Assembly (NCBI RefSeq): GCF_010093445.1
Contig: NZ_PDWW01000014.1
Span: 1 to 64,000 of the forward strand
Reading direction: 5' to 3'
Source of the DNA: Pseudoxanthomonas japonensis
GTDB lineage: Bacteria; Pseudomonadota; Gammaproteobacteria; Xanthomonadales; Xanthomonadaceae
DNA length: 64,000 nucleotides
How positions within the stretch are numbered: the stretch's first letter is position 1; each line of letters begins with the position of its first letter. Under the pieces are notes generated by a model that was given only the letters and a program-made list of their open reading frames with translations, did no database searches and was not told the DNA's origin. Of this stretch, positions 24,541-38,475 are shown in pieces. Made by a program: the position numbers and the translations under genes.

Positions 24541-25110
24541 TTCTCCCCGCGAGCGGGGAGAAGGTGCCCGAAGGGCGGATGAGGGGCTGCTGTTGGCGCA
24601 GGACTTCCCGTTCCGCGGTCCGCCGTTGATCGATTGCGGGAAGCGGGTGAAAGCGTCCGACATCCCTCTCCGCTCGCCCCTCACCCGCCCTTCGGGCACC
24701 CTCTCCCCGCTGCGCAGGGCGAGGGGAGTCATCCCAGCTTCTTAGCGCGTCTTTAGAGAACCGCTCGCTTGCGCGGGCCGAATGGAATGTCCCTTGTCCA
24801 TGCTGGCCGGGGACGTGGTGATTCCCTCTCCCCGCAAGCGTGGCGATTCCTTCTCCCCGCGAGCGGGGAGAAGGTGCCCGAAGGGCGGATGAGGGGCAGC
24901 TTTTCGCGCTGTGCGTCACGTGCCCATTCCTCGATTCTCGAACGCTGGACCTTGGCGCACCCTCACACCAGCCCGTCTTCGCTCGCCCCTCACCCGCCCG
25001 CTGGGCACCCTCTCCCCGCTTCGCAGGGAGAGGGGAGTGGACCTGCCTTTTCCTCACCCCAAAGAAAACGGCCCGCTTGCGCGGGCCGAACGGAGAGGAG
25101 CGGTTGGTGC
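24541..25110. repeat. Two tandem divergent copies of a ~309-bp repeat unit
   Basis: The whole serS-azoR spacer is repeat sequence. Each unit has element A (TTCTCCCCGCGAGCGGGGAG, then AAGGTGCCCGAAGGGCGGATG), about 90 bp of unrelated sequence, the inverted counterpart (CTCGCCCCTCACCCGCCC) and a CGCTTGCGCGGGCCG hairpin. Unit 1 starts at about 24541 and unit 2 at 24850, 309 bp later. Conserved modules with divergent fillers point to an old duplication or two insertions of a composite repeat. Confidence 0.8.
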
Positions 25111-25118
25111 TTATGGGA

Positions 25119-25697
25119 TCAGGCGGCCTTGCGCAGCGGGGCCGGGATGCTGGCCAGCGCGGCTTCGATGGCCTGCGCCTTGTGCTCGGGCGAGTAGGCC
25201 ACGCGCTCGGCGCGGATGAATTCCACGTCGGTGATGCCCAGGAAGCCGAACACCTGCTTCAGGTACGGCGCCACGAAGTCGATCGCGGTGCCGGCGTACT
25301 CGCCGCCGCTGGCCTCGGCCACGATGACCTTCTTGCCGCCGGCCAGGCCCACGGGGCCGTTCTCGGTGTACTTGAAGGTGCGGCCGGCCACGGCGACGCG
25401 GTCGATCCAGGCCTTCAGGGTGGACGGCACGCCGAAGTTGTAGCGCGGCACGCCCAGCACGATGACGTCGGTGGCCAGGAACTGCTGCATGGCGGCCTCG
25501 CCGGCTTGTGCGGCGGCGGCATCGCCCCCACCCAGAATGGCGTTGGTCAGGTGGGGCAGCGGGTCGGCATCGAGGTCGCGGTAGGTGACCTCCAGCCCGG
25601 GCACGCTGTCCTGCCAACGGGCTACGATGGCGGCGGTCAGTTGTCGGCTGACGGAGTTGGCGGCCAGCGCGCTGCTGTCGATATGCAATAGTTTCAC
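25119..25697 (-). CDS. azoR: FMN-dependent NADH-azoreductase
   Basis: A 192-aa flavodoxin-fold NAD(P)H:quinone/azo reductase. The FMN-binding start MKLLHIDSSALAANSVSRQL, VLGVPRYNFGVPSTLKAWIDRV and the EASGGEY region match AzoR. GTG 25697 has GGAG upstream. It is divergent from a LysR regulator, a common arrangement in which the regulator controls the reductase. Confidence 0.93.
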   Translation of the reverse strand: MKLLHIDSSALAANSVSRQLTAAIVARWQDSVPGLEVTYRDLDADPLPHLTNAILGGGDAAAAQAGEAAMQQFLATDVIVLGVPRYNFGVPSTLKAWIDRVAVAGRTFKYTENGPVGLAGGKKVIVAEASGGEYAGTAIDFVAPYLKQVFGFLGITDVEFIRAERVAYSPEHKAQAIEAALASIPAPLRKAA

Positions 25698-25812
25698 GGT
25701 GGTTCTCCAGTCGGATGCGGCCAGTGCCGCCTGGAGATCACTGTAGGTCGTTGCATTATTGGGATAAACGTGGTCTAACGTCACTGATTGTTCTAAAGGC
25801 GGAACTATTGTC

Positions 25813-26820
25813 ATGCAGCACGACCTCAACGACCTCTATTACTTCGCCATGGTGGTGGACCACGGTGGCTTCGCCGCGGCCGAGCGCGCCCTGGGCATTC
25901 CCAAGTCCCGCCTGAGCCGGCGCATCAGCCAGCTGGAGACGGATCTGGGCGTGCGCCTGCTGCAGCGCTCGACGCGCCGCTTCGCCGTCACCGACGTCGG
26001 CACGAGCGTGCACCGCCATGCGCAGACCATGCTGGCCGAGGCCCAGGCCGCGCGCGAAGTGGTCGACCGCCTCAGCGCGGAACCGCGCGGCGTGGTGCGC
26101 GTCAGCGTGCCGGTGGCGGTGGCGCAGATGCAGTTGCCGAAGATCCTGCCGGCCTTCCTCGACAAGTACCCGAAGGTGCGGCTGCAGCTGCACGTCAACA
26201 ACCGCCGCGTCGACATCATCAACGAGGGCTACGACGTGGCGCTGCGCGTACGCGCCAAGCTCGACGACGACGGCAGCCTGGTGATGCGCAGCTTCGGCCA
26301 GATCCAGGAGCTGCTGGTCGCCAGTCCCAAGTACCTCAATCGCGCCGGCCGCCCGAAGATGCCGGAAGACCTGGCCGAGCACGTGACGCTGAGCATCAGC
26401 GAGGACGAGGCGCGCCAGCGCTGGGAGCTGCATGGTCCCGCTGGCGAGGTGCGCCGGATCGAATTGAATCCGCGCCTGGCCGGTTTCGATTTCCCGCTGC
26501 TGCAGTCGATGGCGAAGGACGGCTACGGCATCACGCTGCTGCCGGAGACGGTATGCGCCGAGGCCGTGCGCAAGGGCGAGCTGGAGGTGGTGCTGCCGGA
26601 ATGGAGCCTGCCGCAGGGCATCTGCCATGCGGTGTTCGCCTCGCGCCGGGGTCTGTTGCCGGCGGTGCGGGTGTTCATCGATTTCCTGGCCGAGCACCTG
26701 CCGCAGCAGATCGAGTCGTCGCGGCTGGACTGTGGTGGCGCCTGCGCGGAGGCGAAGGAGAAGGCCATCGCGATGGCGATCGACAACACCAAGGCCGCCA
26801 AGGTGAAGAAGGCCTCGTAG
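25813..26820 (+). CDS. LysR family transcriptional regulator
   Basis: A 335-aa regulator: N-terminal winged HTH (about 5-63, GFAAAERALGIPKSRLSRRISQLE broken here as GFAAAERALG and PKSRLSRRI) and a C-terminal substrate-binding domain (about 92-295). An extra Lys-rich tail (about 300-335) is unusual. It lies divergently 115 bp from azoR, so it likely controls azoR; the inducer is unknown. Confidence 0.92.
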   Translation: MQHDLNDLYYFAMVVDHGGFAAAERALGIPKSRLSRRISQLETDLGVRLLQRSTRRFAVTDVGTSVHRHAQTMLAEAQAAREVVDRLSAEPRGVVRVSVPVAVAQMQLPKILPAFLDKYPKVRLQLHVNNRRVDIINEGYDVALRVRAKLDDDGSLVMRSFGQIQELLVASPKYLNRAGRPKMPEDLAEHVTLSISEDEARQRWELHGPAGEVRRIELNPRLAGFDFPLLQSMAKDGYGITLLPETVCAEAVRKGELEVVLPEWSLPQGICHAVFASRRGLLPAVRVFIDFLAEHLPQQIESSRLDCGGACAEAKEKAIAMAIDNTKAAKVKKAS

Positions 26821-26933
26821 GCCACGGCGGCAGGGTTCGTGCGAAAATGCCGTCCGGCCTGCAAGGGGCCGGGCGTGCCGCCGGGGTAGGGCGGCGATGC
26901 TCCGCGACAGGGGCGCGGGCAGTTCCAGACAAC

Positions 26934-27029
26934 GGAGAGATGGCTGAGCGGTTTAAGGCAGCAGTCTTGACTGCGTAGGCCGAAGGCCGGAGCGAACATC
27001 GACCGCAGGTCGATGGTAAAACTGCCGTA
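26934..27029 (+). pseudogene. Broken tRNA-Ser copy
   Basis: Bases 26934-26970 match the first 37 nt of the intact tRNA-Ser at 27063 except two C/T changes, ending exactly after anticodon TGA. A 46-base insertion follows, then the anticodon-stem continuation AAAACTGCCGTA (to 27029). The variable arm, T arm and acceptor 3' end are missing, so it cannot be a working tRNA. Confidence 0.75.
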
Positions 27030-27062
27030 CGGCGCGCAGCGCCGCGGTAGGGTAGTGACAAC

Positions 27063-27152
27063 GGAGAGATGGCCGAGTGGTTTAAGGCAGCAGTCTTGAA
27101 AACTGCCGTAGGTGTAAGCCTACCGTGGGTTCGAATCCCACTCTCTCCGCCA
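27063..27152 (+). tRNA. tRNA-Ser (UGA anticodon)
   Basis: A 90-nt class II tRNA. Acceptor stem GGAGAGA pairs with TCTCTCC, discriminator G, CCA encoded. The anticodon loop CTTGAAA gives UGA. The long variable arm and GGTTCGAATCC T-loop are intact. An AT-rich gene cassette starts right after its 3' end, so it is a likely integration site. Confidence 0.97.
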
Positions 27153-27203
27153 AACCGACTGTTGCAATTTGAAGTGCTACTCATCACTGCTCAGGAGGAG
27201 CGC

Positions 27204-28106
27204 GTGCTGAAATCCATAAAAGCAATCAGTCATACCAAGTTTGAGAACTTGACATACGACCTAATGCTTTGCTTGGGGATGCGAAATGTTATTTGGCGAA
27301 GTCCTGGCCCTGACGGAGGCAGAGATATCGAGGGCATAGTCCTGCGAGAGGATCCGACTGGTGAACTTTTCAGTGAAAGTTGGTTTGTGGAATGTAAGCG
27401 CTACGCCGCCTCCATTTCCTGGCCGATTGTCTACGAGAAAGTCGCTTACGCTGAGAGTAACAGGGCGGACGTTCTGCTTATGGTCACGACCGCAAACATT
27501 ACGCCAAGCTGTGCTACAGAAATATCAAAGTGGAATGCGCAGCGCCGCGGCTTGAGAATAAGTCGACTAGATGGTCCTCAACTTGAAGTTAAGTTGCGGA
27601 GCTTTCCGCTACTCCTAGCAAAATATCAGCTCATTAAAGGGCCGGCGCAATATCCCGTTAGCTTTCAGAAAATTGCATCGATACTGGCCGTCGTGTGCAC
27701 GGTCGCGGAAGCTGAGCTGGAAATTGCGGCGGAGTCTGTCGCTGCGGATGCGGCTTTCGAACTTTCGCGCTTCGTCTCTTCTCGAATAGCGCAAGTTGAG
27801 GTGCTCGGTAGGTTTGATATAGCTGCTAAGCGGAAGGTTGCGGTGCCGTTATGGTTGACTGGCTTGGTAGAGCTCTCGCAAAATTTAATATGCTTCTTGG
27901 CTTACCTTCGCTACGTAATTCGCGCAAAGGGTGGCTTTAAAGTCGCGGTGGCGCCGACGCCTGGGATGTCTCTTTGCTTGTCTGTTGATCTTGGTGTGGG
28001 TGACTTGGTGATTGGCGACGATTCCGACCTAGTGGTTGTTGGAATGTGGTGTGGAGTTCAGTACCGTATTTCGGGTGATGATCTGATTTTATGGGAGGAG
28101 GGTTGA
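27204..28106 (+). CDS. Mrr-type PD-(D/E)XK nuclease-like protein
   Basis: A 300-aa protein. The N-terminal domain (about 1-135) looks like an Mrr-family restriction endonuclease: E14 in FENLTYDLM, D41 in PDGGRDIEG, E63 and K65 in WFVECKRY, then DVLLMVTTANITP and ISRLDG. All expected catalytic residues are present, so DNA cleavage is plausible. The C-terminal half (about 150-300) is unrecognised. GTG 27204 is chosen because AGGAGG lies 5 bases upstream. AT-rich, unlike its surroundings. Its stop overlaps the kinase start (TGATG). Confidence 0.8.
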   Translation: MLKSIKAISHTKFENLTYDLMLCLGMRNVIWRSPGPDGGRDIEGIVLREDPTGELFSESWFVECKRYAASISWPIVYEKVAYAESNRADVLLMVTTANITPSCATEISKWNAQRRGLRISRLDGPQLEVKLRSFPLLLAKYQLIKGPAQYPVSFQKIASILAVVCTVAEAELEIAAESVAADAAFELSRFVSSRIAQVEVLGRFDIAAKRKVAVPLWLTGLVELSQNLICFLAYLRYVIRAKGGFKVAVAPTPGMSLCLSVDLGVGDLVIGDDSDLVVVGMWCGVQYRISGDDLILWEEG

Positions 28107-28843
28107 TGGCGCTAGAATCTACGATTGATACGCGGACACTCTATAACTTTATCCATCAAGTCGTGAATCCGTTAAATGGAGTTATTGGAACCATAGATAA
28201 TATGATTGATGGATCCCTAAAGGGAGACAAAGATCAGCGATTGAAAGCAGTAAGAGCTCAGTTGGAGCATTCAGTAGAGCTGATAAGGAATATGGCCTAC
28301 TTGTCTAGGTTGAGTATTCCGAGTGAGCTCGAAAGGCTCAAATCGGTTCCGCAACGCTGCGTAGTGCCTGAGTTAATAATTCAGGCTGCACAATTTTTTC
28401 AGGAGTCAGACTCCCATATTGATGTTGAGCTTGATGACCCCGAAACTCAGTACATTGTTTTTGGCTCCAAAGATTTGCTGCGTCAGGTTTTCATGAATTT
28501 GTTCGACAACGCGGCAAAGTACTCTGATCAGCAATCTAAGGTTTTGGTGTCGACCAGGGTTCAGAGGCTTACAAAGAATCTTATTGTTGAGGTCTCTAAT
28601 ACCGGCGTCGGATTTCATAACTCGGATAAAGAAAAAATCTTTGATTTAGGAGTTAGAGGTGGCGAGGCGGAGGCTCACACGGGAGAAGGGTCGGGTATTG
28701 GGTTGTATATTTGTAGGCAGGTTCTAGAGCAAGTTTTTGGAGCAACTATTGAGGCGGAGCATAGTGGCGCGGGGCGAACCACAACTGTCCGATTAAGATT
28801 TCCAAGGTTCAAGAACGAAGGCCAGCGCTCGACTAGGAGGTAG
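28106..28843 (+). CDS. Soluble histidine kinase (cassette sensor)
   Basis: A 245-aa kinase with no membrane segment or obvious sensor domain. The dimerisation/phosphoacceptor helix has H17 in FIHQVVNPLNGVIG; the ATPase domain has an N box (N131, N135 in MNLFDNAAKYS), G1 box SNTGVGF (Asn where Asp is more usual) and G2 box GEGSGIGLYI. Input probably comes from a partner, perhaps the nuclease-like protein. ATG 28106 overlaps the nuclease stop; GGAGGAGG precedes it. Confidence 0.88.
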   Translation: MALESTIDTRTLYNFIHQVVNPLNGVIGTIDNMIDGSLKGDKDQRLKAVRAQLEHSVELIRNMAYLSRLSIPSELERLKSVPQRCVVPELIIQAAQFFQESDSHIDVELDDPETQYIVFGSKDLLRQVFMNLFDNAAKYSDQQSKVLVSTRVQRLTKNLIVEVSNTGVGFHNSDKEKIFDLGVRGGEAEAHTGEGSGIGLYICRQVLEQVFGATIEAEHSGAGRTTTVRLRFPRFKNEGQRSTRR

Positions 28844-28845
28844 AT

Positions 28846-29268
28846 ATGTTTGTTGGCAAACGAGTACTGTTGGTGGATGACCAGCCGCCGGCTGTCGCAT
28901 GGTTGAGGGAGTATCTGGAGAGTGGTGGAGCTGAAGTTGTAATGGAGCCATCATTTTCGGCTGCTTTGGATGCGCTCAATCAGAGAAGGAATCACTTCGA
29001 CTTGGTGACGATCGATTTAATGATGCCGACGACAGGCGTTCCTGATTCCATGTTTGCAGCTAGGCCTCCTTTGTATACGCAGTTCCCTGGGCTGCTACTT
29101 GCAATAGCTGCTAGAAATTCTGGGTATGGTTCTAATAAAGTTCTTCTTTATTCCGTTCAGGATACTGATGAGATCGAGACAGAAGCTGCGCGTGTCGGCG
29201 TTGGCTACTGTGTTAAGGGTCGGCCAAGGGATTTGAAAGAGCGCATACGATCTTTGCTGGATCGTTGA
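28846..29268 (+). CDS. Single-domain response regulator (cassette)
   Basis: A 140-aa receiver domain and nothing else. Acidic pair D11-D12, phosphoacceptor D57 in TIDLMMP, Ser in LLYSVQ, Lys in CVKGRP. Without an output domain it must act by protein contact, plausibly on the nuclease-like protein encoded first in the operon. AGGAGG lies just upstream and the kinase stop is 2 bp away. Confidence 0.88.
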   Translation: MFVGKRVLLVDDQPPAVAWLREYLESGGAEVVMEPSFSAALDALNQRRNHFDLVTIDLMMPTTGVPDSMFAARPPLYTQFPGLLLAIAARNSGYGSNKVLLYSVQDTDEIETEAARVGVGYCVKGRPRDLKERIRSLLDR

Positions 29269-29438
29269 ATTGATGGTCAGAATAATTTAGTGGCGACTGT
29301 AGTTGGGCTTGAGCTTGACGGTACAGTGATATTGTTGTCATGCGTGTTGTGTGTAGACCACACCCATAACTATCCGCTACACCCAGTTCGCCACCTGCCC
29401 GCTAAATGGCGGTTTCCCATCGATGGACGCTACCTCGC

Positions 29439-29720
29439 ATGAAGATGACGCCCACCCCCATCACCGCCGCCATCGCCGGCCTCTTCGCCGGCGTCGCCAT
29501 GCCCCTGATCTGGCCGAAGCTGGGCGACGAGACGATGTACTGGGTGTTCGCGTTCCTGCTGGTGATCGCGCTGCCGATGCATGTGCTGGTCGTGGGCATC
29601 AACCCGACCCGCAATGCCGAGGGCAGGGGAGGCATCGATGCCGCCACGCTCAAGCGCGTCGTCATCTGGCTGGTGGCCGGCATCGCCGCCGTCGCGCTGA
29701 TGAAGATCGTCGCGCCCTGA
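29439..29720 (+). CDS. Small membrane protein, hypothetical
   Basis: A 93-aa protein with three predicted membrane helices (about 5-22, 28-52, 68-88). It marks the return to G+C-rich chromosomal sequence after the island. The start MKMTPTP is a choice among ATGs 29406, 29439 and 29445; no clear ribosome site decides. No family recognised. Confidence 0.65.
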   Translation: MKMTPTPITAAIAGLFAGVAMPLIWPKLGDETMYWVFAFLLVIALPMHVLVVGINPTRNAEGRGGIDAATLKRVVIWLVAGIAAVALMKIVAP

Positions 29721-29892
29721 CGGGAATCGCCGGGTAAGGCGCTCGGCTGCATCCAGGCGTTGCGTGAGGCGGTCCCGGTGGTGCGTCCCGGGTGCGCTTC
29801 GCTTACCCGGGCTACGGGGGCGGGGCGTGACCTCTGGCGCTGTTGCGGGGGTGTGCGGTCCGTAAGATCGGACGTAAACCGGGGAGACAACG

Positions 29893-31062
29893 ATGCGTCC
29901 ATTGCTCGCGATTGGCCTGTTCGTGCTGCTGCCGTTCGCCGCCCCGGCGGCCGGTCCCGCAGCCAATCCCATTCCCACCCGCGCCGCACTGGATGCCGAA
30001 GTCGCCGCGGCCATGAAGGCCGCGCAGGCCAACGGCCTGGCCATCGCGGTGATCGACGACGGCAACGTCGTCCATGTCGCCGCCTACGGCCAGCGCAACG
30101 CGAAAGGCGATCCGCTGCAGACCGACACCGTGATGTATGGCGCGTCCCTGACGAAGGCGGTCTTCGCGTACACGGTGATGCAGCTGGTGGAGGAGGGCAG
30201 GCTCGACCTCGACCGCCCTGTCGGCGAGTACTTCGCCAAACCGCTGACCGACTATCCCGCCGAGGACGCCTACGGTCCCTGGCCAGACCTGGCCGGTGAT
30301 CCCCGCTGGAAGAACATCACCGCACGCCATTTGCTGACCCACAGCAGCGGCTTCGCCAACTTCGCCTATCTCGAACCCGACGGGAAGCTGCGCTTCCACT
30401 TCGATCCCGGTACGCGCTACGCATACTCCGGCGAAGGCCTGATCCTGCTGCAGTACGTGCTCGAGCGCGGGCTGGGCCTGGACCTGGGCGCGGAGATGCA
30501 GCGGCGCGTGTTCGACCGTTTCGACATGCCGAACACCAGCATGATGTGGCGCGCGGATTTTGCCGCCAATCTCGCCGATGGCTGGATGGAGGACGGCACG
30601 GTGGAGCCACACGACGAGCGCAGCCGCGTGCGCGCCGCCGGCTCGATGGATACCACCATTGCCGACCTCGCCAACTTCGTTGCCGCCTACATCCGCGGCG
30701 AAGGCCTGGAGCCGGCTACGTTCGACGCGATGACCTCGCCGCAGCTTCCCATCACCACCGCCAGCCAGTTTCCCACGCTGCAGGACGAACTGCCCGTCGC
30801 GCAGCGGCGCAAGGATCTGGACGCCGGGCTCGGCGTGGTGGTCTTCGACGGCCCGCAGGGCGCGGGCTTTTTCAAGGGCGGGCACAACGATTCCACCGGC
30901 AACACCTGGGTGTGCGTGAAACAGGGCAGGCGCTGCGTGGTGATCCTGGGCAACGACGTGCGCGCCGAGCGCGCATTCCCGCGGCTGGTGGCCTTCGTGC
31001 TGGGCGAGACCGGTGTGCCGTGGCGGTGGGAGTACGGCAGCGGCAAGGTCTTCGTCGACTGA
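29893..31062 (+). CDS. Serine hydrolase, beta-lactamase/class C fold
   Basis: A 389-aa protein with a signal peptide (about 1-20), so periplasmic. The catalytic Ser is in SLTK (SxxK, about residue 85); the YSG variant of YxN is in RYAYSGEG, and KGGHND gives the KTG-like triad. The family includes class C beta-lactamases, DD-peptidases and esterases. The substrate cannot be read from sequence, and resistance should not be assumed. Confidence 0.85.
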   Translation: MRPLLAIGLFVLLPFAAPAAGPAANPIPTRAALDAEVAAAMKAAQANGLAIAVIDDGNVVHVAAYGQRNAKGDPLQTDTVMYGASLTKAVFAYTVMQLVEEGRLDLDRPVGEYFAKPLTDYPAEDAYGPWPDLAGDPRWKNITARHLLTHSSGFANFAYLEPDGKLRFHFDPGTRYAYSGEGLILLQYVLERGLGLDLGAEMQRRVFDRFDMPNTSMMWRADFAANLADGWMEDGTVEPHDERSRVRAAGSMDTTIADLANFVAAYIRGEGLEPATFDAMTSPQLPITTASQFPTLQDELPVAQRRKDLDAGLGVVVFDGPQGAGFFKGGHNDSTGNTWVCVKQGRRCVVILGNDVRAERAFPRLVAFVLGETGVPWRWEYGSGKVFVD

Positions 31063-31199
31063 CGCAGGCGCCGTGGTGCAGGGCTGGCCGGCCAGGCACC
31101 GGGGTGGCAGGGAGGACGCGGCGGACCGGGCGGCCTGTTCTGCGTCAGCGCATACCCGTGGGGAGCGTGGGGCGATGTCGCCCGGCGTTCGGTGTTTCT

Positions 31200-31500
31200 G
31201 GTGGATCAGTGCGTCGTTTCGATCCAGCGTTCCGTGTTTCTGATGGATCAGTGCATCGTTTCGATCCAGTGTTCCGTCTTTTTGATGGATCAGTGCATCG
31301 TTTCGATCCAGCGTTCCGTCTTTTTTGATGGATCAGTCCATCGTTTCGACCCAGTGCTCCATCTTTTTGATGGATCCATGCATCGTTTCGATCCAGTGTT
31401 CCATCATTTCGATGGATCAATGCATCGTTTCGACCCAACGTTCCATCTTTTTGATGGAACGGTCCATCGTTTCGATGGATCGTTGCATCGTTTCGATGCA
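31200..31500. repeat. 21/42-bp minisatellite
   Basis: CGTTTCGA recurs at 31215, 31257, 31299, 31342, 31384, 31426, 31468 and 31489: period 42 (once 43), last step 21. Each 42-mer is two related 21-bp halves. Core GATGGATCAGTGCATCGTTT, then a CGATCCA half. Multiples of seven codons keep several frames open on both strands. Confidence 0.9.
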
Positions 31501-31557
31501 GCGTTGGATCATGGTGATGGATGAGTGGATCAATCCGCGATTTAACATTCTTAACAT
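31417..31557 (-). CDS. Possible 46-aa heptad coiled-coil peptide
   Basis: An ATG at 31557 preceded by GAGAGG 8 bases upstream opens a 46-codon frame into the minisatellite. Hydrophobic residues fall at 14, 17, 21, 24, 28, 31, 35, 38, 42 and 45, a strict 3-4 heptad pattern (TMQRSIE, TMDRSIK, KMERWVE). A TGA inside a repeat ends it. The same heptads continue past the stop with more TGAs. It may be a real small coil, a decayed longer gene, or chance. Confidence 0.35.
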   Translation of the reverse strand: MLRMLNRGLIHSSITMIQRCIETMQRSIETMDRSIKKMERWVETMH

Positions 31558-31809
31558 CACGTTGACCTCTCACTGTGAGATGCGGACTACAATGCTGCGT
31601 CGCATCAGTCGATGTCTGCGTCCATGCTTCGGGGAAGGACGCACATCTGCAGCGCTTCTGCGCGCAGCGTGCCTGGCACGCGGCACCCTGTTTTCCTGCG
31701 CCCGATGGCGGCGCCTTCTTCCGATGCGATGACTCTCCCCGCCGGCGTCCCTGGACGCCTTCGCGTCGTGCCTTGTGCGCGGCATCTCCCCACTCTGGAG
31801 TGCACCTGC

Positions 31810-34107
31810 ATGAGCCTGTTGAAACAACCCACGCCACCTTTTCTTCTCGCCACCGACCTCGACGGCACCTTCCTGGCCGGCGATCCGGACGCGCGCAAGC
31901 GCCTGTACCACCTGGTCGACGCGCATCCCGACGTCAAGCTGGCGTGGGTCACCGGTCGCGGCCGTGAAGCGATCCTGCCGCTGCTCGCCGATCCCGGCCT
32001 GCCCACACCCGATTACGTCATCTGCGATGTCGGCGCCACCGTGCTGCGCACCGCCGACATGCAGCCGATCCAGCCGCTGCAGTCGCAGATCGAAGCGCGC
32101 TGGCCGGGTGAGCACGTGGTCGCCGAGGCCATGCGCCGGTTCCCGATGCTGGTGCGCCAGGAAGTGCCGCAGGAACGCCGCTGCTCGTACTACTGCCATC
32201 CGGAACAGCTGTCCACGATCCAGACGGACGTGGAAGCCGTCGCCGCCTCCCTGGGCTGCGAGGTGCTGTATTCGGCCGACCGCTACCTGGACATCCTGCC
32301 GCGGGAAACGCGCAAGGGCAGCACGCTGACCGCGCTGGTGGACGAACTGGCGCTGGACCCGTCGCGCGTGCTGGTCGCCGGTGACACGCTCAACGACCTG
32401 TCGATGTATGGCGAAGGCTTCCCCGGCGTCTGCGTGGGCGAATCGGAACCGGCGCTGGTGGCCGCCACCGCCGGCATGGACAACGTGCTGCATGCGGAGG
32501 CTCCCGGGTGCGGCGGCATCTTGCAGGCGATGGCGCATTTCGCGCTGCTCGATGCCGACGACTACCTGCCCACGCCGCATCCGCCCGGCAAGGCCGAACT
32601 GGTGATGGTCTACCACCGCCTGCCGTACGAGGAACACATCGTCGATGGCCAGCGCGTGCGCAAGCCGCACAGCTCGCCCAACGGCATCATCCCCAGCCTG
32701 CTCAGCTTCTTCGGCGAAGGCCAGCCCGGTTCGTGGGTGGCGTGGACGGTGGACGATCCGAAGGCGCCGCCGATCGAGGCGCGCGCCCCGGTGGATGCCG
32801 AGCGCTATCCCGGCCTCACGGCGACCCACGTACCGCTGACGAAGCACGAGGTGGACGTGTTCTACAAGCGCTTCTCGAAGGAAGCGTTCTGGCCGGTGAT
32901 CAACAGCTTCTGGGAGCGCGCGCGCTTCAACGAAGACGACTGGGAACTCTTCAAGCGCGTCAACCGCCGCTTCGCCGAAGCCGCCGCTGCCGAGGCCGCG
33001 CCGGGCGCGACGGTCTGGCTGCACGACTACAACCTGTGGATGGTGCCGTCGGTGCTGCGCGAACTCCGCCCGGACGTGAAGATCGCCTTCTTCCACCACA
33101 CGCAGTTCCCGTCGGCGGACATCTTCGCGATCCTGCCGTGGCGTCGCGAGATCCTCGGCAGCCTGCTGGCCTGCGACTACGTGGGCTTCCACATCCCGCG
33201 CCATGCGGAGAACTTCACCGACGCGGTGCGCAGCACGTTCCCGGTGGAAGTGACGCAACGCGCGTCGTGCGCGCCGCGCTTCCTGACCTTCGGCTGCGCC
33301 GTGGGCGTTGAAGACATGGCCACCGAGTTGCGCATCGACGGACGCACGGTGCGCATCGGCGCGCATCCGATCGGCACCGACGTGGGCCGCATCCGGGACT
33401 GCCTGGAGACAGAGCAGGTAGCCGACGACATCGTGCGCATCCGCGACGAAATCGGCCGGCGCAAGCTGGTGCTGTCGATCGAGCGGCTGGACTACACCAA
33501 GGGCATCCTGCAGAAGTTGCATGCGTTCGAGCGCCTGCTGGACGAGTCGCCGGAACTGCGCGGCGAGGTGACGCTGGTGCTGGTCTGCGTGCCGGCGGCC
33601 AAGGAGATGACCGTGTACCGCCCGCTGCAGCAGCAGATCGAGCAGGCGGTGGGCCGCATCAACGGCCGGCTGTCGCAGCTGGACTGGACGCCGGTGCGCT
33701 TCTTCTCGCGTGTGCTGCCGTTCGCCGACGTGGTGGCGCACTACGCCGCGGCCGATGTCATGTGGATCACGCCACTGCGCGATGGCCTGAACCTGGTGGC
33801 GAAGGAGTTCGTCGCCGTGCAGGGCCTGGAGGGCGGCGACGGCGTGCTGGTGTTGTCGGAGTTCGCCGGCGCGGCGGCGGAGTTGAAGGGCGCCGTGCTG
33901 ACCAACCCGCACGATCCGGCCGACATGGCGCGCACGTTGCGGCAGGCACTGGTGATGACACCGGGCGAACGCGAAGATCGCCAGCGCCGGTTGTTCGACA
34001 TCGTGCGCCACCACGACCTGTCGCGCTGGGGCCGCGAATTCCTGGCGGCGGCACGCGGCACGGACGGCACGACGACCGCGGAGCCGCACCCGGCGATCGC
34101 GGCTTAA
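31810..34107 (+). CDS. ggpPS: Bifunctional glucosylglycerol-phosphate phosphatase/synthase
   Basis: A 765-aa fusion. The N-terminal HAD phosphatase (about 1-260) has ATDLDGTF (D16, D18) and GDTLNDLSM (about 191). The C-terminal GT20 synthase (about 265-745) has FFHHTQFPS, ERLDYTKGI (about 558) and TPLRDGLNLVAKEF. The phosphatase-first order matches the Stenotrophomonas rhizophila GgpPS type (from memory), which makes the osmolyte glucosylglycerol from ADP-glucose and glycerol-3-phosphate. A trehalose-phosphate synthase role is the alternative. GGAG is 9 bases before the start. Confidence 0.82.
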   Translation: MSLLKQPTPPFLLATDLDGTFLAGDPDARKRLYHLVDAHPDVKLAWVTGRGREAILPLLADPGLPTPDYVICDVGATVLRTADMQPIQPLQSQIEARWPGEHVVAEAMRRFPMLVRQEVPQERRCSYYCHPEQLSTIQTDVEAVAASLGCEVLYSADRYLDILPRETRKGSTLTALVDELALDPSRVLVAGDTLNDLSMYGEGFPGVCVGESEPALVAATAGMDNVLHAEAPGCGGILQAMAHFALLDADDYLPTPHPPGKAELVMVYHRLPYEEHIVDGQRVRKPHSSPNGIIPSLLSFFGEGQPGSWVAWTVDDPKAPPIEARAPVDAERYPGLTATHVPLTKHEVDVFYKRFSKEAFWPVINSFWERARFNEDDWELFKRVNRRFAEAAAAEAAPGATVWLHDYNLWMVPSVLRELRPDVKIAFFHHTQFPSADIFAILPWRREILGSLLACDYVGFHIPRHAENFTDAVRSTFPVEVTQRASCAPRFLTFGCAVGVEDMATELRIDGRTVRIGAHPIGTDVGRIRDCLETEQVADDIVRIRDEIGRRKLVLSIERLDYTKGILQKLHAFERLLDESPELRGEVTLVLVCVPAAKEMTVYRPLQQQIEQAVGRINGRLSQLDWTPVRFFSRVLPFADVVAHYAAADVMWITPLRDGLNLVAKEFVAVQGLEGGDGVLVLSEFAGAAAELKGAVLTNPHDPADMARTLRQALVMTPGEREDRQRRLFDIVRHHDLSRWGREFLAAARGTDGTTTAEPHPAIAA

Positions 34108-37788: not shown

Positions 37789-38475
37789 CGTCATTCCAGC
37801 GGCTTTCAACAGACGCACGTCTGGTCACGCATGGAATCCATTGCCTGTGTGAGCCGCACTGCTCAATGAAGGAGCAAGATGGGTCCCAGCGTTCGCTGGG
37901 ACGACGGCGGGGTTGTCGATCAGCGCAGGTGCGTCATTCCAGCGGCTTTCAACAGACGCAGGTCTGGTCACGCCGGAATACACTGCCTGTGCGAGCCGCG
38001 CTGCTCGATGGAGGAGCAAGATGGGTCCCAGCGTTCGCTGGGACGACGGCGGAGTGGCCGGTTCGACCGTGACCCGTCATTCCAGCGAACGCTGGAAACC
38101 ATTGCCTATGCGAGCCGCGCTGCTCGATGAAAGAGTAAGACGGGTCCCAACTTTCGCTGGGACGACGGCGGGGTTGTCGATCAGCGCAGGTGCGTCATTC
38201 CAGCGAACGCTGGAATCCATCGCCTATGCGAGCCGCGCTGCTCGATGAAAGAGTAAGACGGGTCCCAACTTTTGCTGGGACGACGGCGGAGTCGCTGGTT
38301 CGACTGTGCGCCTCATTCCAACGGCTTTCAACAGACGCACGTCACGCCGGAATCCACTGCCTGTGCGAGCCGCGCTGCTCGATGAAAGAGCAAGATGGGT
38401 CCCAGCGTTCGCTGGGACGACGGCGGGGTTGTCGATCAGGGCAGGTGCGTCATTCCAGCGCACGCTGGAATCCAT
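37789..38475. repeat. Tandem array of palindromic repeat units
   Basis: Units begin with CGTCATTCCAGCG at 37789, 37932, 38075, 38193, 38311 (variant CCTCATT) and 38448 (partial). Spacing is 143, 143, 118, 118, 137. Each holds hairpin A (CATTCCAGCG/CGCTGGAATCC), a link GCGAGCCGCGCTGCTCGATG and hairpin B (GTCCCAGCGTTCGCTGGGAC). Units 1, 2 and 5 carry a ~25-bp insert with CAGACGCACGTCTG in hairpin A. The array fills the spacer after the GacA-type gene. Confidence 0.92.

What the first reader, a model, noticed from the sequence alone, without database searches (positions are those of the whole stretch)
27153..29390. Nuclease-kinase-receiver cassette inserted behind tRNA-Ser
Three tightly coupled genes (TGATG overlap, then a 2-bp gap) encode an Mrr-type PD-(D/E)XK protein with all expected catalytic residues (E14, D41, E63, K65), a soluble histidine kinase without a sensor domain, and a receiver domain without an output. 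The block is sharply AT-richer than its surroundings and starts at the 3' end of a tRNA. A simple model is a phosphorelay that holds or releases a DNA nuclease, which would be a two-component-controlled defence or DNA-damage module. I do not know of a described system with this exact composition.
Basis: partly seen in the sequence, partly recalled or inferred. Interest (0 to 1): 0.85.

Follow-up and report, generated by a model that had tools for sequence, protein, structure and literature searches.

The report
Mobile nuclease–kinase–receiver operon
A small, mobile set of three bacterial genes that recur together couples a DNA-cutting enzyme to a two-protein phosphate switch and probably protects the cell against viruses; I found no named defence system that it matches.

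Summary
Window 27204-29268 encodes an Mrr-type nuclease, a sensorless histidine kinase (HK) and a lone receiver, in the most AT-rich 2-kb stretch of the window, 51 bp after tRNA-Ser.

It is a conserved unit: 21 loci, window included, carry the three genes in the same order, in Alpha-, Beta- and Gammaproteobacteria, on a plasmid and in phage-derived contigs. Active-site residues are kept in all 21 apart from one E-to-D change. HK searches led back to the same trio. No fourth gene is shared by more than two loci. Seven remote solo nucleases lack HK and receiver.

Two features are new. The trio nucleases carry a C-terminal domain that an HMM does not find in the seven solo relatives; its model resembles ChpT-type phosphotransferases and HK cores (Z up to 6.2, weak) but has no conserved His. 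The HK lacks the G1-box Asp in 21 of 21; 11 of 12 other HKs have it.

Best reading: a mobile anti-phage module whose receiver or HK docks on the nuclease's decoy kinase domain. No experiment was done; defence is inferred from context.

The parts
27063..27152 (+). tRNA-Ser (TGA), left neighbour of the cassette; not part of the operon
   Evidence: ARAGORN, Rfam tRNA
27204..28106 (+). Gene 1: Mrr-type PD-(D/E)XK nuclease with a C-terminal domain that is probably HK-like, 300 aa
   Evidence: ORF and translation; Pfam Mrr_cat; conserved in 21 loci
27204..27638 (+). Nuclease domain, residues 1-145: E14, D41, E63, K65
   Evidence: Model mb035a76a8a3e best matches AspBHI 4oc8 Z 12.4, MspJI 4f0p Z 11.4, Avs4 N-terminus 8dgf Z 10.3; E14, D41, K65 in 21 of 21, E63 in 20
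27639..28106 (+). C-terminal domain, residues 146-300: helical hairpin plus small alpha/beta domain, resembles ChpT/HK DHp-CA
   Evidence: Model m38cbdae19288 pLDDT 83.9, pTM 0.82; VIA-align 4qpj Z 6.2 over 136 residues; not found by HMM in 7 of 7 solo relatives
28106..28843 (+). Gene 2: minimal histidine kinase, 245 aa; His17, N-box and G2 box kept, G1-box Asp missing (N165)
28846..29268 (+). Gene 3: stand-alone receiver, 140 aa; D11, D12, D57, S103, K124; lengthened loop between P61 and G82
27153..29405 (.). AT-rich variable interval between tRNA-Ser and the next conserved gene
   Evidence: Composition; interval compared in 12 congeners

Best explanation
A compact, horizontally moving immune module. 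Shown by sequence: a conserved operon of a nuclease with intact PD-(D/E)XK residues, a soluble HK with its phospho-acceptor His, and a lone receiver with its phospho-acceptor Asp. Inferred: the HK sets the phosphorylation state of the receiver; the receiver (or the HK itself) docks on the nuclease's C-terminal domain, which resembles an HK/ChpT core that has lost its His and so acts as a decoy partner; the change of partner on infection frees or activates the nuclease, which cuts phage DNA, or all DNA in the cell as abortive infection. With no sensor domain, the trigger is probably inside the cell and may be read by the odd ATP pocket of the HK or by DNA bound to the nuclease. Whether phosphorylation releases or recruits the receiver is not determined.
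For: Same three genes, order and strand at 21 loci; gene gaps all between -73 and +12 bp; no other neighbour gene shared by more than 2 of the 21. Active-site residues kept: nuclease E14, D41, K65 21/21, E63 20/21 (D once); HK H17, N131, N135, K138, G195, G197, G199 21/21; receiver D11, D12, D57, K124 21/21, S or T at 103 21/21. Distance matrices of nuclease domain, C-terminal domain, HK and receiver correlate (r 0.67-0.78, 0 of 2000 permutations each); this shows shared descent, not contact. An HMM of the C-terminal domain finds 0 of 7 solo nucleases (E 0.82 or worse or nothing), the nuclease-domain HMM 7 of 7. Its model: 28 of the 50 VIA-align rows are HKs, ChpT-type proteins or GHKL anti-sigma factors; the best natural chains are phosphotransferases 4qpj (a complex with a receiver; Z 6.2, 136 residues, 3.5 A) and 4qpk (Z 6.1, 131 residues). 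Context: all 4 viral-contig loci lie within 3 kb of phage genes: terminase GpA and lysozyme (L036), lysozyme (L037), lambda tail I (L038), GH19 endolysin (L091); the chromosomal L014 has a neighbour 47% identical to the gene next to the L036 terminase and a D5_N gene; L007 lies beside HsdM and HsdS, L006 and L015 near recombinases; trio poorer in G+C than its flanks 21/21.
Against: No functional data. Structural Z for the C-terminal domain is below 8, where the tool warns of common arrangements; the three best rows are designed proteins with 90-98 residues aligned, and Foldseek alone gives no match under 0.001. No sequence similarity between that domain and the HK (hhalign) and no convincing Pfam match for it. 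It is poorly conserved even within the trios (mean identity 19%), so an HMM miss in the solo nucleases does not prove a different fold. The HK lacks the G1 Asp in 21 of 21, so autokinase activity is doubtful. The window and most of the 16 loci show no defence gene that I recognised beside the trio (by eye). A suspected integrase at L013 had no Pfam match. No match of three nucleases and one receiver in 50,697 phage records.
Confidence: 0.5

Rival explanations
1. The nuclease is the sensor rather than the effector: its PD-(D/E)XK domain binds foreign or damaged DNA and signals through its HK-like domain to the HK and receiver, which act on a host target.
For: The HK has no sensor of its own (14-43 residues before the His) and the HK-like C-terminal domain could pair with it.
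Against: The catalytic residues of the nuclease are conserved, which a mere DNA sensor would not need; the receiver has no output domain and no fourth gene is shared by more than two loci.
Confidence: 0.13
2. Toxin-antitoxin or plasmid/prophage addiction: the nuclease is a toxin held by the HK/receiver pair, and the module persists by addiction or excludes competing mobile DNA, not phage in particular.
For: Operon overlap, sporadic distribution (nuclease in 2 of 395 family genomes, own genome included), mobile settings.
Against: Addiction does not need a phosphorelay with its His and Asp residues conserved in 21 of 21 at this divergence (HK 37-46%, receiver 24-36% identity to the window).
Confidence: 0.15
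3. A Detocs-like system proper: the lone receiver is a phosphate sink and the effector is switched by phosphotransfer.
For: HK plus stand-alone receiver plus effector; Detocs is described as a family of three-gene defence systems (PMC11249213, passages).
Against: Here the effector carries no receiver (only Mrr_cat in Pfam; nothing convincing in the C-terminal domain) and no conserved His there, so nothing visible can accept phosphate on it; the HK has no sensor region.
Confidence: 0.1
4. A stress or DNA-repair module (controlled nicking or end-processing after damage) unrelated to immunity.
For: PD-(D/E)XK folds also serve in repair; rows such as EndoMS appear in the fold search.
Against: Sporadic, AT-rich, mobile and in phage-derived contigs, unlike core repair genes.
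Confidence: 0.08

Closest known systems
Detocs (defensive two-component system)
   Same: Three genes; HK, stand-alone receiver and a toxic effector (family described in PMC11249213, passages read; the roles of the single genes are recalled).
   Different: Effector is a DNA nuclease, not a PNP; it is not fused to a receiver; HK has no N-terminal sensor region; the nuclease has a probably HK-like domain instead.
PADLOC candidate PDC-M43 (receiver plus HK-like protein)
   Same: Receiver and GHKL kinase-like protein adjacent (L030); the one example looked at also lacks the G1 Asp.
   Different: The three trio HKs tested match PDC-M43B mainly over the ATP-binding domain, and that model matches in 171 of 185 genomes at 0.001, so it is unspecific; 18 trio receivers do not match PDC-M43A; no nuclease seen in the 3.3 kb of L030.
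Modification-dependent restriction enzymes (AspBHI, MspJI) and Mrr
   Same: Nuclease domain fold and motif.
   Different: No recognised modified-base reader domain; another C-terminal domain; HK and receiver partners.
Avs4
   Same: N-terminal nuclease domain of like fold, Z 10.3.
   Different: No STAND ATPase or repeat sensor in this 300-aa protein.
Shedu (SduA)
   Same: PADLOC model SduA matches 6 of 18 trio receivers, best E 5e-6, suggesting that some Shedu nucleases bear a fused receiver (inference).
   Different: Here the receiver is a separate protein and the nuclease is of the Mrr group.
ChpT / Spo0B-type phosphotransferases; RetS-type decoy kinases (roles recalled)
   Same: Helical hairpin plus degenerate ATP-domain fold that docks receivers (4qpj, 4fpp, 4fmt).
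   Different: No conserved His; fused to a nuclease.

Membership tests
Detocs | HK with a large N-terminal sensor (TPR) region (recalled) | tested here: not met
   14-43 residues before the His in 21 of 21
Detocs | Effector protein carries its own receiver (recalled) | tested here: not met
   Only Mrr_cat in gene 1 of the window; no receiver family in the C-terminal domain of 18 trio nucleases
Detocs | Separate stand-alone receiver | tested here: met
   Gene 3, 140 aa
Detocs | Direct sequence kinship with the Detocs proteins | not tested
   No Detocs sequences fetched; PADLOC hits named no Detocs model, and I do not know whether that version holds one
Canonical two-component pair | Phospho-acceptor His in HK, Asp pocket and Lys in receiver | tested here: met
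   21 of 21
Canonical two-component pair | G1-box Asp of the ATP-binding domain | tested here: not met
   0 of 21, against 11 of 12 other HKs aligned to the same model; the 12 were at hand, not a random sample
Canonical two-component pair | Phosphotransfer from HK to receiver | not testable with these tools
   Needs biochemistry
Mrr / type IV restriction enzyme | PD-(D/E)XK catalytic motif | tested here: met
   Mrr_cat above cut-off; residues conserved
Mrr / type IV restriction enzyme | N-terminal winged-helix reader domain (recalled) | tested here: not met
   Catalytic E14 is 14 residues from the start and no such domain matched
ChpT-like phosphotransferase (C-terminal domain of gene 1) | DHp hairpin plus degenerate CA fold | tested here: inconclusive
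   Z 5.0-6.2 over 131-136 of 155 residues, but below 8; Foldseek weak
ChpT-like phosphotransferase (C-terminal domain of gene 1) | Conserved phospho-accepting His | tested here: not met
   No column with His in 4 or more of 18
PADLOC PDC-M43 | Both PDC-M43A and PDC-M43B match | tested here: not met
   B weak and partial in the 3 HKs tested, A absent in 18 receivers
PADLOC PDC-M58 / PDC-M60 | All genes of one candidate system match | tested here: inconclusive
   PDC-M58A matches 18 of 18 nucleases, best E 5e-13, over the nuclease domain in the window; PDC-M60B 6 of 18 receivers, best E 1e-5; the other genes of these candidates are not known to me
tRNA-integrated island | Flanking tRNA repeat and integrase | tested here: inconclusive
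   No tRNA repeat on the right side in 26500-30200; no integrase by eye among ORFs of 25000-32000; shorter repeats not excluded

The most novel reading that the evidence does not exclude
A DNA nuclease gated by a decoy kinase: its C-terminal domain is a kinase core stripped of its His and ATP site, on which the receiver (or the true HK) docks, so that partner switching in a His-Asp relay directly turns a DNA nuclease on or off, with a sensorless HK whose altered ATP pocket reads the trigger. This would be a new way to wire a two-component system, without transcription and without an output domain on the receiver.
Probability: 0.33. Interest if true: 0.86.

Novelty: new variant of a known kind. 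Interest (0 to 1): 0.72.

Why it matters
Two-component systems are the best-studied bacterial switches and are mostly wired to transcription. Here one is locked to a DNA nuclease, as a three-gene unit that moves between genomes and rides in phage-derived DNA. If the nuclease really wears a decoy kinase domain, it gives a short, testable path from signal to DNA cutting, and a reason to look for other immune effectors hidden behind kinase-like domains. The system is small (2.1 kb), has clear single-residue mutants, and can be tested in E. coli K-12.

Tried and rejected
Rejected: (1) HK and nuclease C-terminal domain as recent duplicates: hhalign gives no signal. (2) PADLOC PDC-M43B as the identity of the HK: that model matches in 171 of 185 genomes. 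(3) tRNA adjacency as a family trait: 2 of 21. (4) An integrase-borne island at the window: no tRNA repeat found, no integrase by eye. (5) The trio in sequenced phage records: no match for the nucleases of window, L036 and L091 or the receiver of L036. (6) Promoter and terminator scan gave nothing above shuffles. (7) A receiver profile scan of viral contigs was impossible for lack of a conserved stretch; the single window receiver found nothing. (8) Fold rows are dominated by the nuclease domain in the full model, hence the separate C-terminal model. (9) A fourth conserved gene: 782 flanking ORFs compared; five families span 2 loci each, none more. (10) Guesses by eye that did not hold: the neighbour at L013 as integrase (no Pfam match) and the L014 neighbour as terminase by Pfam (matched AbiEi_4/HTH instead; but 47% identical to an L036 phage gene).

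Limits: the genome scan uses two short peptide patterns; the phylum and order HK searches scored at most 6 candidates per genome; HK plasmid search listed 25 of 73 records.

Literature: searches gave no paper that the listings or passages show to describe this trio (107 listed 15 of 97). Papers seen as passages: PMC7159879, PMC10952713, PMC13092281 (its section 8 whole), PMC8195603, PMC12839542, PMC11249213, PMC7824862. Caveat: the legend of PMC13092281 Fig. 6F lists HATPase and REC among domains of its eight highlighted predicted systems; the figure is not held, so overlap with the present trio cannot be excluded. The original Detocs paper was not read; its gene layout is recalled.
Full report
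What is there. Three genes follow tRNA-Ser(TGA) (27063-27152) in an AT-rich block: nuclease 27204-28106, HK 28106-28843, receiver 28846-29268. The trio is 48.3% G+C against 66.7% for the window, and among 2065-nt stretches sampled every 100 bases the lowest lies here. Pfam gives Mrr_cat, HATPase_c (HisKA below cut-off) and Response_reg.

Is it a unit? The nuclease is rare: 2 of 395 family genomes including the window's own. The second, G342, has the same three genes, as does a Diaphorobacter plasmid. A scan of the species-genome collection with a three-sequence nuclease alignment gave 20 loci; 14 hold HK and receiver directly downstream and 6 do not. The 14 all match at 3e-36 or better, the 6 at 4e-19 or worse (Actinomadura, Pedobacter, an archaeon, Lentzea, Novosphingobium, a planctomycete). 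That scan uses two short peptide patterns, so 14 is a lower bound. A nuclease scan of viral contigs gave 3 loci, all trios. Reverse tests: an HK scan of viral contigs gave 5 loci, of which 4 are trios (one new, L091) and one an ordinary sensor HK beside a response regulator. An HK profile at E 1e-30 found only the own gene in 61 relatives and in 398 genomes of the phylum; in 398 genomes of the order it found the own gene, one new trio (G1174, L099) and one ordinary HK/regulator pair (G1104). In the last two searches at most 6 candidates per genome were scored. Among 72,556 plasmid records the Xanthomonas floridensis receiver has one match and the HK one match clearly above the rest (44% identity, 6e-48; the next listed 1e-16), both in the Diaphorobacter trio. 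Total: 21 trios: window, L003, L006-L018, L021, L036, L037, L038, L091, L099. The closest pair is 67% identical in the nuclease (L021, L036), the next 58%, then 49%, so these are not copies of one recent event. A comparison of 782 flanking ORFs of at least 80 aa found five families shared by two loci each and none by more: the unit is three genes long. Flanks are short in places: L011 and L017 have about 200 bp upstream, L038 10 bp downstream.

Anatomy across 21 trios. Nuclease domain: mean pairwise identity 46%; E14, D41, K65 in 21, E63 in 20 with D in L016. C-terminal domain: 19%. HK: 44%; His17, N-box N131, D134, N135, K138, Y139 and G2-box glycines in 21. The G1-box Asp that normally contacts adenine (recalled) is missing in 21 of 21 (Asn in the window); of 12 other HKs at hand, aligned to the same model, 11 have it and one, L030, does not (ten of the 12 were the top hits of the PDC-M43B search, so not a random sample). 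Receiver: 35%; D11, D12, D57, K124 in 21, S or T at 103 in 21; 16-21 residues from P61 to G82 (about 5 in ordinary receivers, recalled). The HK has 14-43 residues before the His, too few for a sensor. Gene gaps run from -73 to +12 bp in all 21. Starts are mostly the first possible start codon, moved downstream by me in the window (nuclease and HK), L014 and L018, so large overlaps may be overstated. Distance matrices of the parts correlate at r 0.67-0.78 with 0 of 2000 permutations reaching the value in each of six comparisons; this shows that the genes travelled together, not that they touch.

The nuclease is two domains. Its model (18 sequences, mean pLDDT 80.5, pTM 0.60) has a PD-(D/E)XK domain matching AspBHI (Z 12.4, 135 residues, 3.4 A), MspJI (11.4), AF1548 (11.1) and the N-terminus of Avs4 (10.3). 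Residues 146-300 modelled alone (pLDDT 83.9, pTM 0.82) form two long helices, then helix-strand-strand-helix-strand-strand. Among VIA-align rows the first three are designed proteins with 90-98 residues aligned; then come the phosphotransferases 4qpj (with a receiver; Z 6.2, 136 residues, 3.5 A) and 4qpk (6.1, 131), later 4fpp and 4fmt (5.1, 5.0) and HK cores such as 6paj and 4r39. By title, 28 of the 50 rows are HKs, ChpT-type proteins or anti-sigma factors (the GHKL nature of the latter is recalled), 12 are designed proteins and 10 are others. All Z are below 8, Foldseek alone is weak (best E 4e-3, designed proteins), there is no sequence match to the HK, no convincing Pfam match and no His column. 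I take the HK-like fold as likely, not proven. What makes it interesting is the distribution: an HMM of this domain finds none of 7 solo relatives, although the nuclease-domain HMM finds all 7. Because the domain is so poorly conserved, the miss could hide a shared fold; still, the domain goes with the HK and receiver, as an interface would.

Setting. All 4 viral-contig loci sit within 3 kb of phage genes: terminase GpA and lysozyme in L036, lysozyme (and DUF1441 further on) in L037, lambda tail I in L038, a GH19 endolysin in L091. In L036 and L091 the trio points against the neighbouring lysis genes, as cargo genes often do. L014, on a Variovorax chromosome, has a neighbour 47% identical to the gene beside the L036 terminase and a D5_N gene. 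L007 has HsdM and HsdS upstream; L006 and L015 have recombinases within about 4 kb; L011 has a RelA/SpoT-domain gene downstream. The other loci show nothing I recognise as defence, by eye, and a suspected integrase at L013 had no Pfam match. The trio is poorer in G+C than its flanks in 21 of 21. At the window, the interval between tRNA-Ser and the next conserved gene has a different length in each of 12 congeners examined (chosen from 37 because both sides were listed close together on one contig); cargo includes AbiTii (L087) and RelA/SpoT (L085) genes and, by eye, REP-associated transposase-like proteins. So the spot is variable and takes up small cargo, at least some of it of abortive-infection type, by an unknown route.

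How it probably works. The intact His, Asp and nuclease residues argue for a working relay and a working nuclease. The receiver has no output domain, so its output must be a protein contact; the HK-like domain of the nuclease is the natural candidate, since that fold binds receivers (4qpj). Without a His it would bind without passing phosphate, so phosphorylation of the receiver by the true HK could shift it between the two partners and so switch the nuclease. Pairing of the two helical hairpins, HK with nuclease, is the alternative contact. The trigger is unknown; the altered ATP pocket suggests either weak nucleotide binding that responds to nucleotide changes in infection, or use of the HK mainly as phosphatase. 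Shown: genes, conservation, linkage, mobile settings. Inferred: phosphotransfer, docking, gating, defence.

Known or new. PADLOC gives only partial matches to different candidates (PDC-M58A, PDC-M43B, PDC-M60B). PDC-M43 appears to be a receiver plus HK-like pair (L030), a hint that two-component parts recur in candidate defence systems. Detocs is the named system nearest in principle but fails two of its recalled defining features here. Literature searches listed under Tried and rejected found no description; one figure that might overlap could not be seen (PMC13092281, Fig. 6F legend). A published parallel for a nuclease joined to a kinase-like domain is the Schlafen-family RNase fused to a minimal histidine kinase near BREX loci (PMC12839542, passage). 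I therefore call it a new variant of a known kind, the two-component immune system, with an unusual wiring.

Noticed in passing
26938-26975: A truncated copy of the 5' half of tRNA-Ser lies 129 bp upstream of the intact gene; G330, G253 and G284 also carry one or two such partial copies.
   Followed up: partly
31185-31521: AT-rich tandem array of a 42-nt unit (6.9 copies, 87% match), open in several frames; nature unknown.
   Followed up: no
37789-38320: Tandem array of 118-142-nt units; nature unknown.
   Followed up: no
L087:505-1422 and L085:2705-3943: In congeners the same tRNA-Ser spot holds an AbiTii gene (4e-36) or a RelA/SpoT-domain gene (1e-17): a small-cargo hot spot worth a survey.
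   Followed up: partly
L030:609-2364: Divergent receiver (PDC-M43A, 4e-15) followed by an HK-like protein (PDC-M43B, 1e-16) that also lacks the G1 Asp.
   Followed up: partly
L009:5088-5924: Directly upstream of the Xanthomonas floridensis trio lies a second Mrr_cat protein (7e-29) with hydrophobic N-terminal stretches by eye.
   Followed up: no
L004:5935-6921: Rhizobium plasmid nuclease relative next to a site-specific integrase, without HK or receiver, and not found by the HMM of the HK-like C-terminal domain.
   Followed up: partly
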